Virus record (IMG/VR): IMGVR_UViG_3300021961_000610 | Location: 1-24,558 of that record | Length of the DNA stretch: 24,558 nt | From: a virus | Direction: 5' to 3' (one strand) | Shown: positions 1 to 10,518 of the stretch, in pieces | How positions within the stretch are numbered: the stretch's first letter is position 1 | Layout: each line of letters begins with the position of its first letter | Notes under the pieces: generated by a model | What the model was told of the DNA's origin: nothing | The model's database searches: none | Seen by the model: only the letters and a program-made list of their open reading frames with translations | Program-made: the position numbers and the translations under genes

Positions 1-335
1 GAGGTAACCTAATTGCCATGATATGTTATGATGCCCAATCAGCAAATCAGAATAATTTATACTCCTCTACAACTGTTACTAACGGACAGTATTATCACGT
101 AGTGGCTACTTTTGATAGTGGCTATAATTGGAAAATCTACATAAACGGAGTTTTAGAAAATGAAACCACATTAACCGGTAAACCGTATCAAAACTCATCT
201 TCTATCTCTATAGGAAGAGGAGACAGTAGAACTATGAACGGCGAGCTTCCTATTGCAAAAATATACAACCGAACGCTCACAGCCTCAGAGGTCAAATCAA
301 ACTATAACGCCATCAAAGGCAGATTTAATATTTAG
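1..335 (+). CDS. LamG-like virion/tail-fibre protein, C-terminal part (5' end outside window)
   Basis: The reading frame is already open at base 3, so this is the C-terminal end (about 110 residues) of a gene starting before the window; an internal Met at base 18 is unlikely to be the true start. The visible part looks like the second half of a LamG/concanavalin A-like jelly roll: a GQYYHVVATFD strand, then IYINGVL, then SISIGRG, and a closing segment GELPIAKIYNRTLTASEV, the typical end of phage and bacterial LamG domains. The ending GRFNI matches the ending GRFNM of the next gene, so the two are paralogues. Family knowledge: such domains bind glycans or act as folding modules in fibres. Inference: a surface-binding virion protein. 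Six bases separate its stop from the next ATG. Confidence 0.8.
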   Translation, partial: GNLIAMICYDAQSANQNNLYSSTTVTNGQYYHVVATFDSGYNWKIYINGVLENETTLTGKPYQNSSSISIGRGDSRTMNGELPIAKIYNRTLTASEVKSNYNAIKGRFNI

Positions 336-341
336 TAAGTT

Positions 342-1547
342 ATGGCAGTAAGACACGGATACGGAAAGGTAGCAGGAGCAGATGCATTAACATTTGCATA
401 CGATACTGGGGATATTAGGAATAGTTACAAGGGGGAACCTACCACTAATTTAATTCCATCTGGAGTTGCGTTTTGCCATTCCACAGGACAAGGAGCCGCA
501 GCAACAGTAGAAGATGCACCAGAGAAAGGACCAGGATGGAAAAAAGTTACCATCACAGCTAGAGGTACTAACTTTAGAATTATACAGTGGACATACCTAT
601 CTATGACAGCAAATACTCTATACTGTCATTCTATTGTGTTTGATTGGGGTAATATGAGAGGTAAAAACTACTTTATTTACTTTGATGGCGACGGTACAGG
701 CACCAGAGCATACTACAGACCTGGAGATTACGTAAACACAGGAGGAACTAATATAGATTCATCTATGCCAGATGGTAAGTTTGCAGGAACTATAACTCAT
801 ACCGGTAACCATGCTCATGCATTCTTTATTGGTAATTACACACTTAATCAAAGCGGACTAAACGACTACTTCTACTATAAAGAGTATCAAGCAGAAGTTA
901 ATTCACATCCAACTCAATACACAGGAGGAACACGATCAGCCACACAAGCTTTATTAGATCTGACAGGAAATAGTGAAATTACATTAAATAGTGTGTCGTT
1001 TGATTCAAACGCACAAATGTTATTTGATGGCACAGACGATTCTATAGGTTACGCATATGTAGGTATTTCAAATTATTCACAACCATTTACTATGGAATGT
1101 GTATTCATAGTAGATCCTGCAGCAACTTGGGATAACGGGTATAGAAGTAATATATTTGGTATTGCGGGATCTTATGCTGGTATGTACGGACTTAATAAGC
1201 ACAGTGGTGATAGTGTAGGATTGTATGTAAGAGACGCATCTGGAGGCGGCGCTGCCGACGTAGGCGGTTTATCTAAAGGAGTGTATTACCACTTAGTTGG
1301 AACTTGGGATGGAACTGATGATATACGTATATATTTAAACGGTAGCCTACGTAATACAGCTACATCCGCAAAAAGCGGCGCTCCTGATACTACTTCTATC
1401 TGGCTTGGAGGAACACGAGCATACTCAGGAACAAGCGGACAAGTGTACCACGGTGAAATACCTGTTGCAAAATACTATAACCGAGCACTTACGGCCATAG
1501 AGGTAAGAAACAACTTTAATTTATACAAAGGCCGATTTAACATGTAA
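342..1547 (+). CDS. LamG-domain virion protein (probable tail fibre/adhesin)
   Basis: A 401-residue protein with a C-terminal LamG/concanavalin A-like domain at about residues 215-401. The recognisable pieces are QMLFDGTDDSI, PFTMECVFIVDP, GVYYHLVGTWDGTDDIRIYLNGSL and the closing GEIPVAKYYNRALTAIEV. The N-terminal 200 residues are rich in Gly, Tyr and Thr and look like a second beta-sandwich or carbohydrate-binding module, but I do not recognise a family. It is paralogous to the truncated gene before it: both end in KGRFN(I/M) after an aligned closing strand. The start at 342 (MAVRHGYGKV) is chosen because it follows the previous stop by six bases; there is no Shine-Dalgarno sequence. Inference: a host-surface-binding structural protein. 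An enzymatic role is not supported by any motif I can see. Confidence 0.8.
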   Translation: MAVRHGYGKVAGADALTFAYDTGDIRNSYKGEPTTNLIPSGVAFCHSTGQGAAATVEDAPEKGPGWKKVTITARGTNFRIIQWTYLSMTANTLYCHSIVFDWGNMRGKNYFIYFDGDGTGTRAYYRPGDYVNTGGTNIDSSMPDGKFAGTITHTGNHAHAFFIGNYTLNQSGLNDYFYYKEYQAEVNSHPTQYTGGTRSATQALLDLTGNSEITLNSVSFDSNAQMLFDGTDDSIGYAYVGISNYSQPFTMECVFIVDPAATWDNGYRSNIFGIAGSYAGMYGLNKHSGDSVGLYVRDASGGGAADVGGLSKGVYYHLVGTWDGTDDIRIYLNGSLRNTATSAKSGAPDTTSIWLGGTRAYSGTSGQVYHGEIPVAKYYNRALTAIEVRNNFNLYKGRFNM

Positions 1548-4861: not shown

Positions 4862-6595
4862 ATGGCAGAAAGAATTTTATCACCAGGTGTATTTTCAAGA
4901 GAAAATGACCTATCTTTCATCACCCCAGCTGCTGGCGAGATCTCTACGGCTTTAGTAGGACCTACAACTAAAGGTCCTGTTAATATTCCTACTGTAGTTA
5001 GATCTTTAGGCGAGTACCTAAATGTATTTGGCGGCACTTTCAAATCAGGTAGTGACTACTACAACCACTTTACTACAATCGCAGCTGAAAAGTACTTCGA
5101 ACAAGGAGGTTCTTCTCTCTTAGTTACTAGAGTATCTGATGATACTTTCTCTAGTGCTACTGCTACAGTATATAGTGCTTCTGCTGCATGGTTTACCTTA
5201 AAGACTCTAAGTCAAGGTGAGATCATGAACAACAGCGGTAGTGGTACATTAGCAGGAGCTGACAATGCTCTTGTTTCCGGTTCAGCCGATAACGTAAGAT
5301 GGGAAATTACTAACGTAGATGCAGCACAGGGTACTGTTTCTCTTGTTATCAGAAGAGGTGACGACAACGAAAAGAACAAAATCGTTCTAGAGTCTTATTC
5401 TAACCTTTCTTTAGATCCTAAATCTGCTAACTACATCGCCAAAGTAATCGGTGATCAGTATAAGACAGTTAGCGGTGTTGATGGAGCTGTAACAGTAAAC
5501 GGTGAGTATGCAAACTCTTCTAAATTCGTTTATGTAGATGCAGTAACATTCAAAACCCCGGACTACTTCGACAATACTGGAGCTGCTAAAGGAGCTTACT
5601 CTGCTTCATTTGAAGCGTTTGTAATCGGTAGCGGATCTGCTCACGGTACATTCGGTTCAGCAGAAGGAGTTTTATTCCAAGCCGGAGTTGCTGCAACATT
5701 TAATCAGAACATTGCTAGCGCAACAGACTCACAAGGTATCGATCCTTCTACTGCTTACGCTACAGCATTACTATCTCTTGCTAACAAAGACGAATATAAA
5801 TTTAACGTACTATTAACACCAGGTCTTACAAAAGATCTTAACTCTTCAGTAGTATCAAGCTTTATCAGCTTAGTAGAAGGAAGAGGAGATGCAATCTACG
5901 TTGTAGATGCTTATAAGTACGGAGGTTCAGTAGCCAATGCAGTATCTAGTGCTGCTGGTATGAATAGCTCTTATGCAGCTGCTTACTGGCCATGGGTTAA
6001 AGTATCTGACAACCAGTTAGGAAAGAATACATGGGCTCCAGCTTCTGCAGTAATCGGAGGTGTTTATGCCTTCACTGATAGAGTAGGTGCTGAATGGTTC
6101 GCTCCTGCAGGTCTATTAAGAGGTGGTATTCCAGGTGTAGTAACAGCTGAAAGAAAGCTTTCTCAATCAGACAGAGACACATTATACGGAGGTAAAGTTA
6201 ACCCACTTGCTACCTTCCCAGGTTCAGGTGTTGTAGCTTACGGTCAGAAGACATTACAGACTAAAGCTTCTGCATTAGACAGAGTAAACGTTCGTAGACT
6301 TCTTATCAACCTTAAGAACTTCATCGGTGATCAAGCTAACAACTTAGTATTCGAGCAGAACACAATCGCTACTCGTAACAGATTCTTAGCCGCCACTAAC
6401 CCATATCTTGAAACTGTAGTACAGCGTCAAGGACTTTACGCTTACAGAGTTGTAATGGATGACACCAACAACACTGCTGACGTTATCGATAGAAACCAAT
6501 TAGTAGGTCAGATCTTTATCCAACCAACTAAGACTGCGGAATTCATCGTACTTGACTTCGTTGTTCAGCCAACAGGTGCAACATTTGGAGCGTAA
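4862..6595 (+). CDS. Tail sheath protein (T4 gp18-like)
   Basis: The contractile outer tube of the tail; many copies polymerise around the inner tube and shorten on infection. The 577 residues are somewhat shorter than T4 gp18 (659). The N-terminus MAERILSPGVFSRENDLSFI and the following STALVGPTTKGPVNIPTVV are the classic sheath opening (SPGV...E.D, then GP...GP...). The C-terminal domain at about residues 465-577 is also typical: ASALDRVNVRRLLINLKNFI, FEQNTIATRNRF, LETVVQRQGLYAYRVVMDDT and FIQPTKTAEFIVLDFVVQP. The middle (about 90-300) is the variable, probably surface-exposed part. It is followed directly by the tube gene, as in T4. It lacks a Shine-Dalgarno sequence. Confidence 0.97.
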   Translation: MAERILSPGVFSRENDLSFITPAAGEISTALVGPTTKGPVNIPTVVRSLGEYLNVFGGTFKSGSDYYNHFTTIAAEKYFEQGGSSLLVTRVSDDTFSSATATVYSASAAWFTLKTLSQGEIMNNSGSGTLAGADNALVSGSADNVRWEITNVDAAQGTVSLVIRRGDDNEKNKIVLESYSNLSLDPKSANYIAKVIGDQYKTVSGVDGAVTVNGEYANSSKFVYVDAVTFKTPDYFDNTGAAKGAYSASFEAFVIGSGSAHGTFGSAEGVLFQAGVAATFNQNIASATDSQGIDPSTAYATALLSLANKDEYKFNVLLTPGLTKDLNSSVVSSFISLVEGRGDAIYVVDAYKYGGSVANAVSSAAGMNSSYAAAYWPWVKVSDNQLGKNTWAPASAVIGGVYAFTDRVGAEWFAPAGLLRGGIPGVVTAERKLSQSDRDTLYGGKVNPLATFPGSGVVAYGQKTLQTKASALDRVNVRRLLINLKNFIGDQANNLVFEQNTIATRNRFLAATNPYLETVVQRQGLYAYRVVMDDTNNTADVIDRNQLVGQIFIQPTKTAEFIVLDFVVQPTGATFGA

Positions 6596-6624: not shown

Positions 6625-7110
6625 ATGCCAGTACTAGATCCAAACGAAATCATGTTTACCGCCTTCGAACCGAAGGTAACGAACAGATTTATCATGTACA
6701 TCGATGGAATTCCATCATATATGGTTAAGAGCGTAACTTCACCTTCTTTTACTGACGGTGTTATCAAGCTTGACCACATCAACACTTACAGAAAGATCCG
6801 CGGTAAGAGAGAATGGCAGAACATGACTCTCTCATTATACGATCCAATCACACCTTCTGGTGCACAGGCTGTAATGGAGTGGGCTCGTTTAGGATATGAA
6901 TCAGTAACTGGTAGAGCTGGATACTCTGACTTCTACAAGAAAGACGTAACTTTAAATATGCTAGGTCCTGTTGGAGATATCGTAGGAGAATGGATCGTTA
7001 AAGGTGCATTCGTACAATCTTCTAACTTCGGTACTTACAACTGGTCTACAGATGAAGCCATCTCAGTTGAACTAGTATTATCAATGGACTACTGTGTATT
7101 AAACTTCTAA
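6625..7110 (+). CDS. Tail tube protein (T4 gp19-like)
   Basis: The inner tail tube subunit, stacked in hexameric rings inside the sheath. Its 161 residues are almost the same length as T4 gp19 (163). Telling segments are the opening PNEIMFTAFEPKVTNRFIMY, the IPSYMVKSVTSPSF strand, the region IRGKREWQNMTLSLYDPITP and the ending ISVELVLSMDYCVLNF. These match the gp19 pattern of an N-terminal 'F-P---NRF---I-GI--Y-V' and a C-terminal beta strand with D(Y/F)C. Placement right after the sheath supports the call. It is followed by a strong terminator. Confidence 0.95.
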   Translation: MPVLDPNEIMFTAFEPKVTNRFIMYIDGIPSYMVKSVTSPSFTDGVIKLDHINTYRKIRGKREWQNMTLSLYDPITPSGAQAVMEWARLGYESVTGRAGYSDFYKKDVTLNMLGPVGDIVGEWIVKGAFVQSSNFGTYNWSTDEAISVELVLSMDYCVLNF

Positions 7111-7197: not shown

Positions 7198-7938
7198 ATG
7201 GAATCAAAATTTAAGTTACCTACTGAAACGGTTGAGCTACCGTCAAAAGGCTTACTCTACCCAGAAGGGCACCCTTTATCCGCCGGTACAATTGAGATGA
7301 AATACATGACCGCACGGGAAGAAGACATCTTAACCAATCAGAATTATATTAGACAAGGCACTGTCATTGATAAGCTATTACAGTCTTTAATTGTAACAGA
7401 AGTACCTTATGACGAGATCTTGATTGGAGATAAGAATGCTATTATGGTAGCAGCTAGAATCTTATCTTACGGTAAAGACTATGATTTTGATCTAGGAAAC
7501 GGTAAGCAGACTATTGACCTTACAACCTTCAATAATAAAGAGATTCAAGAAGACTTATATAAGAGAGGTCAAAATGAATTCGAGTTCACTCTACCTCATA
7601 CAGACAATACTGTAACCTTTAAGCTTTTAACTCACGGTGATGAAACTAAGATCGAACAAGAGATTAAAGGCCTTCAGAAGATCAATAAAGATAATATTGC
7701 CGAAGCTACTACTCGATTGAAATATATTATCACATCTATCAACGGATCAAGAGAAAAGAAGGATGTTAGAGAGTTTGTTGACTACGGACTATTAGCTCGT
7801 GATGCTAGAGCATTAAGAGAATACTACACTAAAGTATCTCCAGATCTAGATATGACTTATACCTACACAGACTTAGACGGTGCAGAGAGGGAGGCTGCCC
7901 TTCCAATTACTGTTAGCTTTTTTTGGCCTGACGCCTGA
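7198..7938 (+). CDS. gp26-like baseplate/tail assembly protein, short (unshifted) product
   Basis: A 246-residue protein. The opening TVELPSKGLLYPEGHPLSAG and the following EMKYMTAREEDILTN are the hallmark of the T4 gp26-like baseplate family (recalled Pfam name T4_baseplate). A middle segment resembles a folded beta domain (FEFTLPHTDNTVTFKLLTHG), followed by helices. The zero-frame product ends SFFWPDA just after a run of seven Ts (7918-7924). A second open frame continues for 91 codons beyond that run with no ATG start of its own near the junction. Its position immediately before the tape measure is the position of the lambda G and GT tail chaperones. I therefore infer a short form (246 residues) and a frameshifted long form of about 333 residues. 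In T4, gp26 is linked to baseplate hub assembly. Confidence 0.85.
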   Translation: MESKFKLPTETVELPSKGLLYPEGHPLSAGTIEMKYMTAREEDILTNQNYIRQGTVIDKLLQSLIVTEVPYDEILIGDKNAIMVAARILSYGKDYDFDLGNGKQTIDLTTFNNKEIQEDLYKRGQNEFEFTLPHTDNTVTFKLLTHGDETKIEQEIKGLQKINKDNIAEATTRLKYIITSINGSREKKDVREFVDYGLLARDARALREYYTKVSPDLDMTYTYTDLDGAEREAALPITVSFFWPDA

Positions 7939-8200
7939 GTATAGAACTCTACTGTATCAACAGATACACGACATAGTCTTTCACGGTAAAGGAGGGTATG
8001 ATTGGCAGACGGTCTACAATATGCCAATATGGCTACGTAGATTCACCTTTCAATCAATCAGAGACTTCTACGAGAAAGAAGCAGAAGCACAAAAAGAAGC
8101 TATGGATAAAGCAACCGGAGTACAGCAAGCAGCACCAAGCAATACTGTACAGATTCCGGATGCAGTAAAAAAAGCGACATACACTACTAAAAAACAGTAG
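7880..8200 (+). CDS. Downstream frame of the gp26-like gene, probably expressed by programmed frameshift (gp51/GT-like)
   Basis: This frame opens at 7877 after a TAG at 7874-7876 and runs to 8200. The only start-like codon upstream of the overlap is GTG at 7880; the first ATG is about 48 codons in, inside what looks like a folded domain, so independent initiation is unlikely. The part after the T run begins GLTPEYRTLLYQQIHDIVFH and continues to GYDWQTVYNMPIWLRRF, then a charged helix and a low-complexity Lys/Thr tail. The VYNMPIWLRRF segment resembles small T4-like proteins (gp51-type hub assembly factors) and the T-domains of tail chaperones; this is pattern recall and moderately sure. If translated as a fusion it adds 91 residues to residues 1-242 of the upstream product. 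The tape measure starts 30 bases later. Confidence 0.7.
   Translation: MQRGRLPFQLLLAFFGLTPEYRTLLYQQIHDIVFHGKGGYDWQTVYNMPIWLRRFTFQSIRDFYEKEAEAQKEAMDKATGVQQAAPSNTVQIPDAVKKATYTTKKQ
7918..7924 (+). promoter_or_regulatory. Slippery T7 run, candidate +1 or -2 ribosomal frameshift site
   Basis: Zero-frame codons read AGC TTT TTT TGG. A P-site Phe tRNA on 7921-7923 can re-pair perfectly on TTT after slipping +1 (7922-7924) or -2 (7919-7921), and either move enters the frame that stays open to 8200. A -1 slip would not reach that frame. The zero-frame stop is 12 bases beyond the run (TGA at 7936). A homopolymer length error in the assembly is the main alternative. Confidence 0.6.
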
Positions 8201-8229: not shown

Positions 8230-10518
8230 ATGGCAGAAGATAATTTAAACTTAGAAGGTAATATTGAGAGAGCCGAGGAACTGAAAATGTCCTTTGGCTC
8301 TATTAATAATGCTGTTAATGAACTTAACAAAGCATTAAGACGTACCGGTGAAGATACTGCTGAAGTAAGTAGAGTGTTTGCTCAACTAAAAACCTCTGCA
8401 GATAACGTTGCTAAAGTACAACGAAGTATTCAAGAGAGTTCTGCTGGTACTGCGAATGCTATTAAGGAACAAAAAGCTAACCAGGATAAAGCTACTCAGT
8501 TAGCAAAACAAGCTGGTGAGTTTTATACTCAAGCTCAGACAGCAACCGGTAAAACAAAAGATAATCTTCTACAGCAATCAGAAAACCTCTATAGAGCTTC
8601 AGGAGAAGCTAAAGTACTTTCTGAATTATACAAAGAAATTGCAATACAGGCAGCTAAACTAGACTCCTCTACAAAGTTCTTTAGAACAGCAAGCACATTT
8701 ATATCCAGTATACCTGGATTTAAAGCATTCGCTGAACCTTTCCAACAAGCAGAAAAAGCAGCCAGAGAAGCTGTAGCTAAGACAGGTAGTACTATATCAG
8801 GCTTTGGAGCAGGTTTAAAAGCCCTAGGTAAAGGTTTATTCGATATGCTATCTCTTCCTGCTTTAATTGCAGGTACATTACAGCTTTCAAAGAATACTAA
8901 GGACTTAAGTACTAACTTGGGTATTAGCATGAGTGCTGCAAGAGATATTGAAAGAAGTTTCGATAGGTTCGCACTAAGTACAGAAGATAGCAGAGTAACT
9001 ACTCAGAAACTATTACAGGCACAGAATACATTATCCGGTCAATTAGGTTTAGCAGTACAGTTTAGTGGGGAGACTCTACAGAACTTTATCATGCTTACCG
9101 AGTATATGGGAGTAAGCACAGAAGCTGCTGCTAAACTCACCATGCTTTCGGAAGGTCTTGGAGCTAACTCTAGAGATTTTACAAACAATATAGCAGAATC
9201 TGTAACACAAGCAGGTCTTGCTCTAGGAGTAAACATTCCGCTGAAAGACGCTTACGAAACTATTGGTAAGATGTCTTCAACTACGCTAGTTAATCTACAG
9301 AGAAACCCAGAAGCATTAGCTAGAGCAGTAGCAGAAGCAAAAGCATTAGGAGCTACCTTTGAACAGTTAAGCAGTGTTTCAAGTAGCTTACTTAATTTTG
9401 AGACCTCTATCGAGAATGAGCTTCAAGCTGAACTTCTAGTAGGACGTCAGCTTAATCTAGAAAAAGCTAGAGCAGCAGCACTGACTGGTGATCAAGCAAG
9501 CTTAGCAAAAGAACTGAGAACTCAGATCGGCTCGATTAACGAGTTCGAAAAGATGAACGTAATTCAAAGAGAATCTCTAGCACAGGCCTTTGGATTAAAC
9601 GTTGAGCAGTTGAGTGAGATGCTTCTAAAGCAAGAAGCATTAAATGCTAATGCTAAATCTGCCAGAGACCTAACAACAGAGCAGATCAGTCAAGCTAGAG
9701 CGTTGGCTAAAGAGAAGAACATAGGCTTTGGAGATGCACTATCTCAGATTCAAGAAGAAAGAGATGCTGCTAAAGCTTTTGAAGATGCATCTAAAAAACT
9801 ACTAGGTACATTCCAGAGATTATTTATCGAGCTATCTCCTGTACTGGAAAAAATTGCTAATATTGCTGGTGATCTAGCTGCTAATCCATTCTTCAAAGGC
9901 CTTACTCTTGTAGGAGCTGGAACAATGGCTTTATCCTCTATTGCTAAATCTCTAAACCTTATACCTCAAAAGGTGTTTGTTGTAAATCAGAGCCCGATGG
10001 GAGGTGCCGGAGGCGGCCAAGGAGGGTTAGGAGGCATGATGAGAACCTTACCAGGCGGTAGCCGATACGCAGCAGCTATGAGAATGAATCAAGCTGGTAA
10101 ATTCGGTATGAGTAGAGCTATGGGAATGAAAGGTGTAGGTCTAGGAGCAATAGCAGGCATTGCAGGAATGGGAGTATCAGCTCTAGCCGATAACTACGAA
10201 GAAGGTAGTGCTGCTAATGTAGGATTAGGTACAGCAGGAGGTGCTCTACAAGGCGCTGGCACAGGTGCGATGATTGGATCTATTATTCCAGGTGTCGGAA
10301 CATTAGCTGGCGCTGGTATTGGAGCTGCAATCGGAGGTCTTACAGCTTATCTTAATAGAAAAGATAGAGAAGAAGAGAAAGAGAAGAATGCTGGAGGAGA
10401 AAAGTACGACAAGATGATTCAACTACTTGAAGAGCAGGCTAAGAAAGACACTAAGATATTTATGGATGCCAATCAGGTTGGTATTTCAATGGCTTTAGGT
10501 AACCCAAGATTAAATTAA
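8230..10518 (+). CDS. Tail tape measure protein (T4 gp29 role)
   Basis: Sets tail length and lies inside the tube until DNA ejection. The 762 residues are longer than T4 gp29 (590). Residues 1-170 are a long helical, coiled-coil-like region rich in Ala, Gln, Lys and Glu (ELNKALRRTGEDTAEVSRVF). Hydrophobic segments follow at about 194-214 (GLKALGKGLFDMLSLPALIA), about 552-575 (FFKGLTLVGAGTMALSSIAK), and two Gly/Ala-rich stretches at about 632-656 and 662-708 (GAMIGSIIPGVGTLAGAGIG), as in other tape measures that insert into the host membrane. The segment ASKKLLGTFQRLFIELSPVL is also typical. It has no peptidase or lysozyme domain that I can see. It follows the frameshifted chaperone-like gene, the usual gene order for tape measures. 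Confidence 0.9.
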   Translation: MAEDNLNLEGNIERAEELKMSFGSINNAVNELNKALRRTGEDTAEVSRVFAQLKTSADNVAKVQRSIQESSAGTANAIKEQKANQDKATQLAKQAGEFYTQAQTATGKTKDNLLQQSENLYRASGEAKVLSELYKEIAIQAAKLDSSTKFFRTASTFISSIPGFKAFAEPFQQAEKAAREAVAKTGSTISGFGAGLKALGKGLFDMLSLPALIAGTLQLSKNTKDLSTNLGISMSAARDIERSFDRFALSTEDSRVTTQKLLQAQNTLSGQLGLAVQFSGETLQNFIMLTEYMGVSTEAAAKLTMLSEGLGANSRDFTNNIAESVTQAGLALGVNIPLKDAYETIGKMSSTTLVNLQRNPEALARAVAEAKALGATFEQLSSVSSSLLNFETSIENELQAELLVGRQLNLEKARAAALTGDQASLAKELRTQIGSINEFEKMNVIQRESLAQAFGLNVEQLSEMLLKQEALNANAKSARDLTTEQISQARALAKEKNIGFGDALSQIQEERDAAKAFEDASKKLLGTFQRLFIELSPVLEKIANIAGDLAANPFFKGLTLVGAGTMALSSIAKSLNLIPQKVFVVNQSPMGGAGGGQGGLGGMMRTLPGGSRYAAAMRMNQAGKFGMSRAMGMKGVGLGAIAGIAGMGVSALADNYEEGSAANVGLGTAGGALQGAGTGAMIGSIIPGVGTLAGAGIGAAIGGLTAYLNRKDREEEKEKNAGGEKYDKMIQLLEEQAKKDTKIFMDANQVGISMALGNPRLN

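What the first reader, a model, noticed from the sequence alone, without database searches (positions are those of the whole stretch)
7861..8200. Programmed +1 or -2 frameshift candidate just upstream of the tape measure in a T4-like phage
Seen: the gp26-like frame ends 12 bases after a run of seven Ts, and a second frame with no credible start stays open for 91 codons across the same run. Slipping by +1 or -2 on TTT gives perfect re-pairing and joins the frames; -1 does not. Known: tail chaperone genes (lambda G/GT, with Mu using -2) sit right before the tape measure and are joined by frameshift. T4 has separate gp26 and gp51 and is not described in this way as far as I recall. Inferred: gp26/gp51-type proteins may be the G/GT pair of T4-like phages.
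Basis: partly seen in the sequence, partly recalled or inferred. Interest (0 to 1): 0.78.

Follow-up and report, generated by a model that had tools for sequence, protein, structure and literature searches.

The report
Forward ribosome slip builds tail chaperone
In this T4-like phage and well over a hundred relatives, a conserved run of Ts just before the tail-ruler gene most likely makes some ribosomes slip one base forward and add a tail to a chaperone; the general trick is known for phages, but the forward direction in this T4-like group looks like a new variant.

Summary
In detail: AGC TTT TTT TGG CCT GAC GCC TGA at 7915-7938, and a second frame open for 91 codons (7925-8197) without its own start, between a T4 gp26-like gene and the tape measure gene. 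It is not a sequencing error: well over 100 related contigs and several isolate genomes (Flavobacterium immuto, Microcystis Mel-JY01, Bacillus SP-15, Rhodothermus RM378) keep the arrangement. The second frame is under purifying selection (dN/dS about 0.11; no stops in 3,940 codons).
It is best read as a lambda G/GT-type tail assembly chaperone (TAC-N/TAC-NC) made by +1 frameshifting at UUU_U (CUU_U or UUU_C in relatives). +1 beats -2: outside the window's own subclade the first Phe codon can be TTC, which breaks -2 re-pairing, while the second stays TTT/CTT. A sister clade reaches the homologous extension by -1 at T_TTT_TTC, so direction has switched within one gene family.
The idea that 26/51 are the T4 G/GT pair is prior art: Vladimirov et al. 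2022, known here through papers citing it. New here are the direction, the site rule and the sister-clade switch. No frameshift product was shown experimentally, and -2 is not excluded for the window's own subclade.

The parts
4862..6595 (+). tail sheath protein (gp18-like)
   Evidence: PHROG 23 E 6e-78, Pfam PF04984 E 3.6e-13
6625..7110 (+). tail tube protein (gp19-like)
   Evidence: PHROG 4542 'tail tube protein' E 4.6e-20; PF06841 E 3e-4, below its cut-off
7198..7938 (+). TAC-N: gp26-like short tail assembly chaperone, 246 aa, ending FFWPDA*
   Evidence: PHROG 150 'baseplate hub' E 1.6e-10; AF2 model pLDDT 92.6 matches phage baseplate hub / hub assembly proteins in BFVD, E down to 1e-18; hhalign to T4 gp26 profile 87%, E 4e-6
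7918..7924 (+). slippery run TTT TTT T: proposed +1 shift with UUU (7921-7923) in the P site and UGG in the A site, re-pairing on 7922-7924
   Evidence: direct reading; conserved in relatives
7925..8200 (+). TAC-C: C-terminal extension read only after the shift (91 codons, GLTPEYR...YNMPIWLR...); no start codon of its own
   Evidence: dN/dS 0.11 and no stops across relatives; predicted helices 5-21, 28-32 and 36-68 of the 92-residue model, mean pLDDT 77
7929..7931 (+). stop TGA closing the -1 frame three codons after the run; present in nearly all relatives
   Evidence: m1stop +11 in all but L067
8230..10518 (+). tail tape measure protein (762 aa)
   Evidence: 31% identity over residues 220-578 to the annotated tape measure of Flavobacterium phage immuto; position

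Best explanation
The locus is a lambda G/GT-type tail assembly chaperone gene of a T4-like phage. Most ribosomes stop at 7936 and make the short TAC-N (gp26-like, 246 aa). A minority, paused with tRNA-Phe on the second UUU (7921-7923) and UGG in the A site, slip +1 onto UUU (7922-7924) and read on from GGC at 7925, making a 333-residue TAC-NC (...VSFFGLTPEYR...). By analogy with lambda, TAC-N coats the tape measure protein encoded next door and the extension recruits tail tube subunits. Shown by sequence: the overlapping conserved frames, the constrained site and the gene order. Inferred: that the shift is +1, its efficiency, and the chaperone function.
For: Both frames conserved in all informative relatives; second frame under purifying selection, starting right at the run; no usable start codon in half the loci. 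Site rule: every +1 member read has a YTT_Y site (TTT_T, CTT_T, TTT_C). [quoted passage not shown] +1 versus -2: of the 120 loci returned for TTC TTT TGG CCT GAC, 52 are gp26 homologues with the motif in place, against 1 of 120 for TTT TTC TGG CCT GAC. So codon 1 may be TTC (which breaks -2 re-pairing) but codon 2 must end in T (needed for +1 re-pairing). GXN1 (TTC TTT CGT) and LR756508 (TTT CTA TTC) also fit +1 only. The base before the run is T in 1 of 74 TTT-TTT sites but in 12 of 34 TTC-TTT sites (Fisher P 2e-6, uncorrected for relatedness), as if T_TTT_TTT, a -1 heptamer, is avoided. A sister clade has T_TTT_TTC with the homologous extension in the -1 frame.
Against: No protein or reporter data. 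Within the window's own subclade codon 1 is also always TTT (0 TTC of 55, against 27 of 258 at five other conserved Phe columns), so -2 still fits there. No conserved stimulator was found: folding z-scores downstream are near control (mean -0.53 against -0.24 and -0.56; -1.17 over 120 nt), no stop codon in the A site, no Shine-Dalgarno run 3 nt upstream. Chaperone function rests on gp26 homology and gene order; the PDB fold search gave nothing significant (HK97 chaperone 2ob9 at E 3.3).
Confidence: 0.82

Rival explanations
1. -2 frameshifting as in phage Mu: tRNA-Phe on UUU (7921-7923) slips back two bases onto 7919-7921 and the extension begins with one extra Phe (VSFFFGLT).
For: Fits the seven-T run and CTT variants; codon 1 is always TTT in the window's subclade; -2 is documented for Mu (PMC5009743).
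Against: Relatives with TTC TTT T (52 loci) and TTC TTT C (GXN1) would need Phe-tRNA to pair with UCU; LR756508 would need ACU. Codon 2, not codon 1, is the strictly constrained one in the wider family.
Confidence: 0.1
2. Transcriptional slippage: RNA polymerase drops one T (or adds two) in the run, and part of the mRNA encodes the fusion directly.
For: A T run sits exactly at the junction.
Against: Seven Ts is short for this (own knowledge), and many relatives have the run broken: TTTCTTT, TTCTTTT, TTCTTTC. The constraint follows codon position, not run length.
Confidence: 0.03
3. The second frame is an independent gene started internally, for example at the conserved ATG in YNMPIWLR or at GTG 7880.
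For: Annotators have called short ORFs there (37 codons in immuto; 40 codons in SP-15); a conserved Met is present in many.
Against: Conserved residues lie upstream of that Met (GLT, IHEIVFHG); many relatives have YNLP instead of YNMP; 56 of 113 loci have no ATG/GTG/TTG before +20, and in many the +1 frame is closed within 2-8 bases upstream of the run.
Confidence: 0.04
4. Sequencing error or a recent frameshift mutation in one intact gene.
For: Homopolymer.
Against: Same arrangement in well over 100 contigs and in isolate genomes; the 0-frame stop lies 15-30 bases from the slip site in every locus.
Confidence: 0.01

Closest known systems
Tail assembly chaperones of T4-like phages (Vladimirov, Gautam & Davidson 2022, Virology 566:9-15)
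   Same: gp26-family TAC-N with a TAC-C extension; the papers that cite it say poly-T -1 signals occur in T4-like TAC-N genes (PMC12846349) and that some T4-like phages carry separate short and long genes (PMC10885494)
   Different: The window and its clade use the +1 phase at UUU_U. Whether that paper already lists a +1 group could not be checked (not held).
Lambda gpG/gpGT (-1), P2 tail genes (-1), Vandenendeviridae TAC (-1, GTTTTT)
   Same: Same place before the tape measure; short and frameshift-extended forms
   Different: Opposite direction; no X_XXY_YYZ heptamer in the window
Phage Mu tail genes (-2) and archaeal virus HSTV-2 (very likely +1), PMC5009743
   Same: Same target phase (+1 frame)
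   Different: Mu slips -2; HSTV-2 was not compared here
Bacterial release factor 2 (CUU_U) and Yersinia yopN (proposed UUU_UGG) +1 sites
   Same: Identical tetranucleotides; the yopN site proposed is UUU-UGG (PMC3789692), as here
   Different: RF2 has a stop in the A site and an SD-like stimulator; changing the yopN site in Y. pseudotuberculosis did not abolish the hybrid (PMC3789692)
T4 gp26 and gp51
   Same: TAC-N is homologous to gp26; gp51's C-terminus lines up in register with TAC-C (YS...M.P.ER)
   Different: In T4 these are two divergently transcribed genes; the gp51 match is only suggestive (E 0.0065; 1 of 60 column shuffles scored higher)

Membership tests
Frameshifted tail assembly chaperone (lambda G/GT type) | Two overlapping frames between the tail tube and tape measure genes | tested here: met
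   same order in L082, L356, L357
Frameshifted tail assembly chaperone (lambda G/GT type) | Second frame protein-coding and lacking its own start | tested here: met
   dN/dS 0.11, 0 stops in 3,940 codons; starts absent in half the loci
Frameshifted tail assembly chaperone (lambda G/GT type) | Conserved slippery site at the junction | tested here: met
Frameshifted tail assembly chaperone (lambda G/GT type) | Both products made at a set ratio; bind tape measure and tube proteins | not testable with these tools
   needs mass spectrometry and binding assays
Frameshifted tail assembly chaperone (lambda G/GT type) | Fold like a solved TAC (HK97 2ob9) | tested here: inconclusive
   rank 39, E 3.3, TM 0.46 on the target
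T4 gp26 (PHROG 150) as TAC-N | Profile and fold match | tested here: met
   E 1.6e-10; hhalign 87%; BFVD hub proteins
T4 gp51 as TAC-NC | C-terminal domain homologous to TAC-C | tested here: inconclusive
   E 0.15 with A2, 0.0065 with a wider set
Canonical -1 frameshift site | X_XXY_YYZ heptamer and an open -1 frame | tested here: not met
   C before the run; -1 frame stops at 7929
Mu-type -2 frameshift | P-site tRNA can re-pair two bases back in all members | tested here: not met
   TTC TTT variants in relatives; still possible for the window's own subclade
+1 site of UUU_Y / CUU_U type | P-site YUU followed by Y | tested here: met
   rule from PMC5009743
RF2 (prfB) programmed +1 frameshift | Stop codon in the A site and SD-like run 3 nt upstream | tested here: not met
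   A-site codon TGG; upstream ACT GTT AGC TTT

The most novel reading that the evidence does not exclude
The T4-like tail chaperone family has switched frameshift direction at least once while keeping the same extension. One clade reads TAC-C by +1 at YUU_Y, its sister by -1 at U_UUU_UUC, and T4 itself encodes the two forms as separate genes. The +1 clade also appears to avoid a U before the run so that the -1 option stays closed. If +1 use here is undescribed, this is a natural series for studying how recoding direction is set by one or two bases.
Probability: 0.6. Interest if true: 0.6.

Novelty: new variant of a known kind. Interest (0 to 1): 0.45.

Why it matters
A 2016 review named T4 as the exception to G/GT frameshifting; the 2022 work addressed that. 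This locus adds a large, mostly uncultured T4-like group where the shift goes forward, with a simple site rule and natural variants that separate +1 from -2. It also corrects annotation: in the phage records inspected the extension is missing or called as a short hypothetical protein.

Tried and rejected
TAC-C fold search in BFVD: no significant hit; weak matches include a 71-residue Leptospira phage LE4 protein whose accession follows that of an LE4 protein matched by TAC-N. Downstream RNA stimulator: no signal beyond controls at 70 nt. First argument that 'codon 1 is always TTT, so -2': true only in the window's subclade, overturned for the wider family. T4 gp51 homology of TAC-C: not significant. 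Vladimirov et al. 2022 is not held, so its exact list of shift types was not checked. The 120 loci per DNA pattern are capped samples, and loci found by pattern are biased at the searched bases; the codon-identity test was therefore repeated on protein-fetched loci only. The P values do not correct for relatedness.

Full report
Observation. The gp26-like frame (7198-7938) ends AGC TTT TTT TGG CCT GAC GCC TGA; the T run is 7918-7924. The frame one base ahead runs from GGC 7925 to 8197 and is followed at 8230 by the tape measure gene. The -1 frame closes at TGA 7929. Upstream lie the sheath and tube genes. The record is a 24,558-base virus record of IMG/VR type.

What the proteins are. The first frame matches PHROG 150 'baseplate hub' (E 1.6e-10), the T4 gp26 family. 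A model built from 77 relatives (pLDDT 92.6) matches phage baseplate hub and T4-like 'baseplate hub assembly' proteins in BFVD (E down to 1e-18), and hhalign against a T4 gp26 profile gives 87%, E 4e-6. The second frame has no library match above noise. Its model is helical (5-21, 28-32, 36-68; pLDDT 77).

Conservation. A protein search in IMG/VR gave at least 598 relatives and the best 80 were read. All keep a (T/C)TT T site in the same frame near the end of gp26, and wherever the contig is long enough the +1 frame stays open. With pattern-found loci added, the set holds 118 loci, 108 distinct contexts. After the 0-frame stop, the +1 frame has no stop in 3,940 codons, pooled dN/dS 0.11 and third-position excess, against ratios of 1.2 and 1.5 in the other frames. 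Because the synonymous rate is near saturation, the ratio is approximate. Half the loci (56 of 113) offer no ATG/GTG/TTG in this frame before 20 bases past the site. The conserved start of the extension (GLT) sits directly at the run.

Which slip. In the 0 frame the two Phe codons are T1-T3 and T4-T6. +1 re-pairing needs T5-T7; -2 re-pairing needs T2-T4. Both T3 and T6 are synonymous positions. A collection search for TTC TTT TGG CCT GAC returned 120 loci, 52 of them gp26 homologues with the motif in place. The mirror search, TTT TTC TGG CCT GAC, gave one (L371), and that one still has TTT_T at codon 1. So T6 is needed and T3 is not, as +1 predicts. Other natural variants fit: CTT TGG (L046, L066, L077, immuto), TTT TTC and TTT TAT after the first Phe (L062, L065, L071), TTT CAC (SP-15), TTC TTT CGT (GXN1), TTT CTA (LR756508) and TTT TTT TGG in RM378. 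In LIS04 (TTT TTT AGT) the perfect +1 site is the first TTT. [quoted passage not shown] One caution: in the window's own subclade codon 1 is TTT in all 55 relatives, against about 10% TTC at other conserved Phe columns. There the extra constraint could mean two chances to slip +1, or -2.

Direction switch. A sister group of gp26 genes (L294-L349 and LR756511) ends AAT TTT TTC TTC CC, a T_TTT_TTC heptamer, with the homologous extension in the -1 frame. XacN1 also reads -1, at GCT TTT TTT. In the +1 set the base before the run is T in 1 of 74 sites with TTT TTT but in 12 of 34 with TTC TTT (P 2e-6), and Asn there is AAC in 54 of 56 cases against 33% elsewhere in the gene. This looks like avoidance of the -1 heptamer.

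Known context. A 2016 review describes G/GT frameshifting as widely conserved in long-tailed phages 'except T4', with -1, -2 or +1 used in different phages (PMC5009743). Vladimirov et al. 2022 then identified the T4-like tail chaperones; later papers cite it for poly-T -1 signals in T4-like TAC-N genes (PMC12846349) and for T4-like phages that carry separate short and long genes (PMC10885494). My recollection of its abstract, which assigns genes 26 and 51 of T4 to the two forms and keeps frameshifting for other T4-like groups, is memory only. In T4 the two genes are divergent. My own test of gp51's C-terminus against the extension is in register but weak (E 0.0065, 1 of 60 column shuffles higher).

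Verdict. A real, conserved, almost certainly programmed frameshift of the tail assembly chaperone type. +1 is favoured over -2 at roughly eight to one (my judgement). The kind is known; the direction in this T4-like group and the switch between sister clades are the new part, subject to the one paper that could not be read.

Noticed in passing
window 7909-7911 (ACT here); codon three before the first slip Phe in relatives: Where this codon is Gly it is GGG in 55 of 67 genes, against 11% GGG among Gly codons elsewhere in these genes. Possible stimulator, unexplained; absent in the window itself.
   Followed up: partly
L371:3514-3560: The only locus with TTC at the second Phe codon has a partial tandem duplication in the +1 frame (SGLTYEFFGLTFEY).
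   Followed up: partly
L082:6741-7004, L356:2226-2445, L357:2211-2442, L358 after 2232: The extension is unannotated or called as a short hypothetical ORF in the immuto, SP-15, LIS04 and GXN1 records.
   Followed up: yes
L086, L146, L117 and similar gp26 genes: Distant relatives keep two CxxC pairs (zinc-ribbon-like) in TAC-N that the window protein has lost.
   Followed up: no
window 3-1547: Adjacent ORFs end in similar motifs (AKIYNRTLTASEVKSNYNAIKGRFNI and AKYYNRALTAIEVRNNFNLYKGRFNM), suggestive of lectin-like tail fibre proteins.
   Followed up: no
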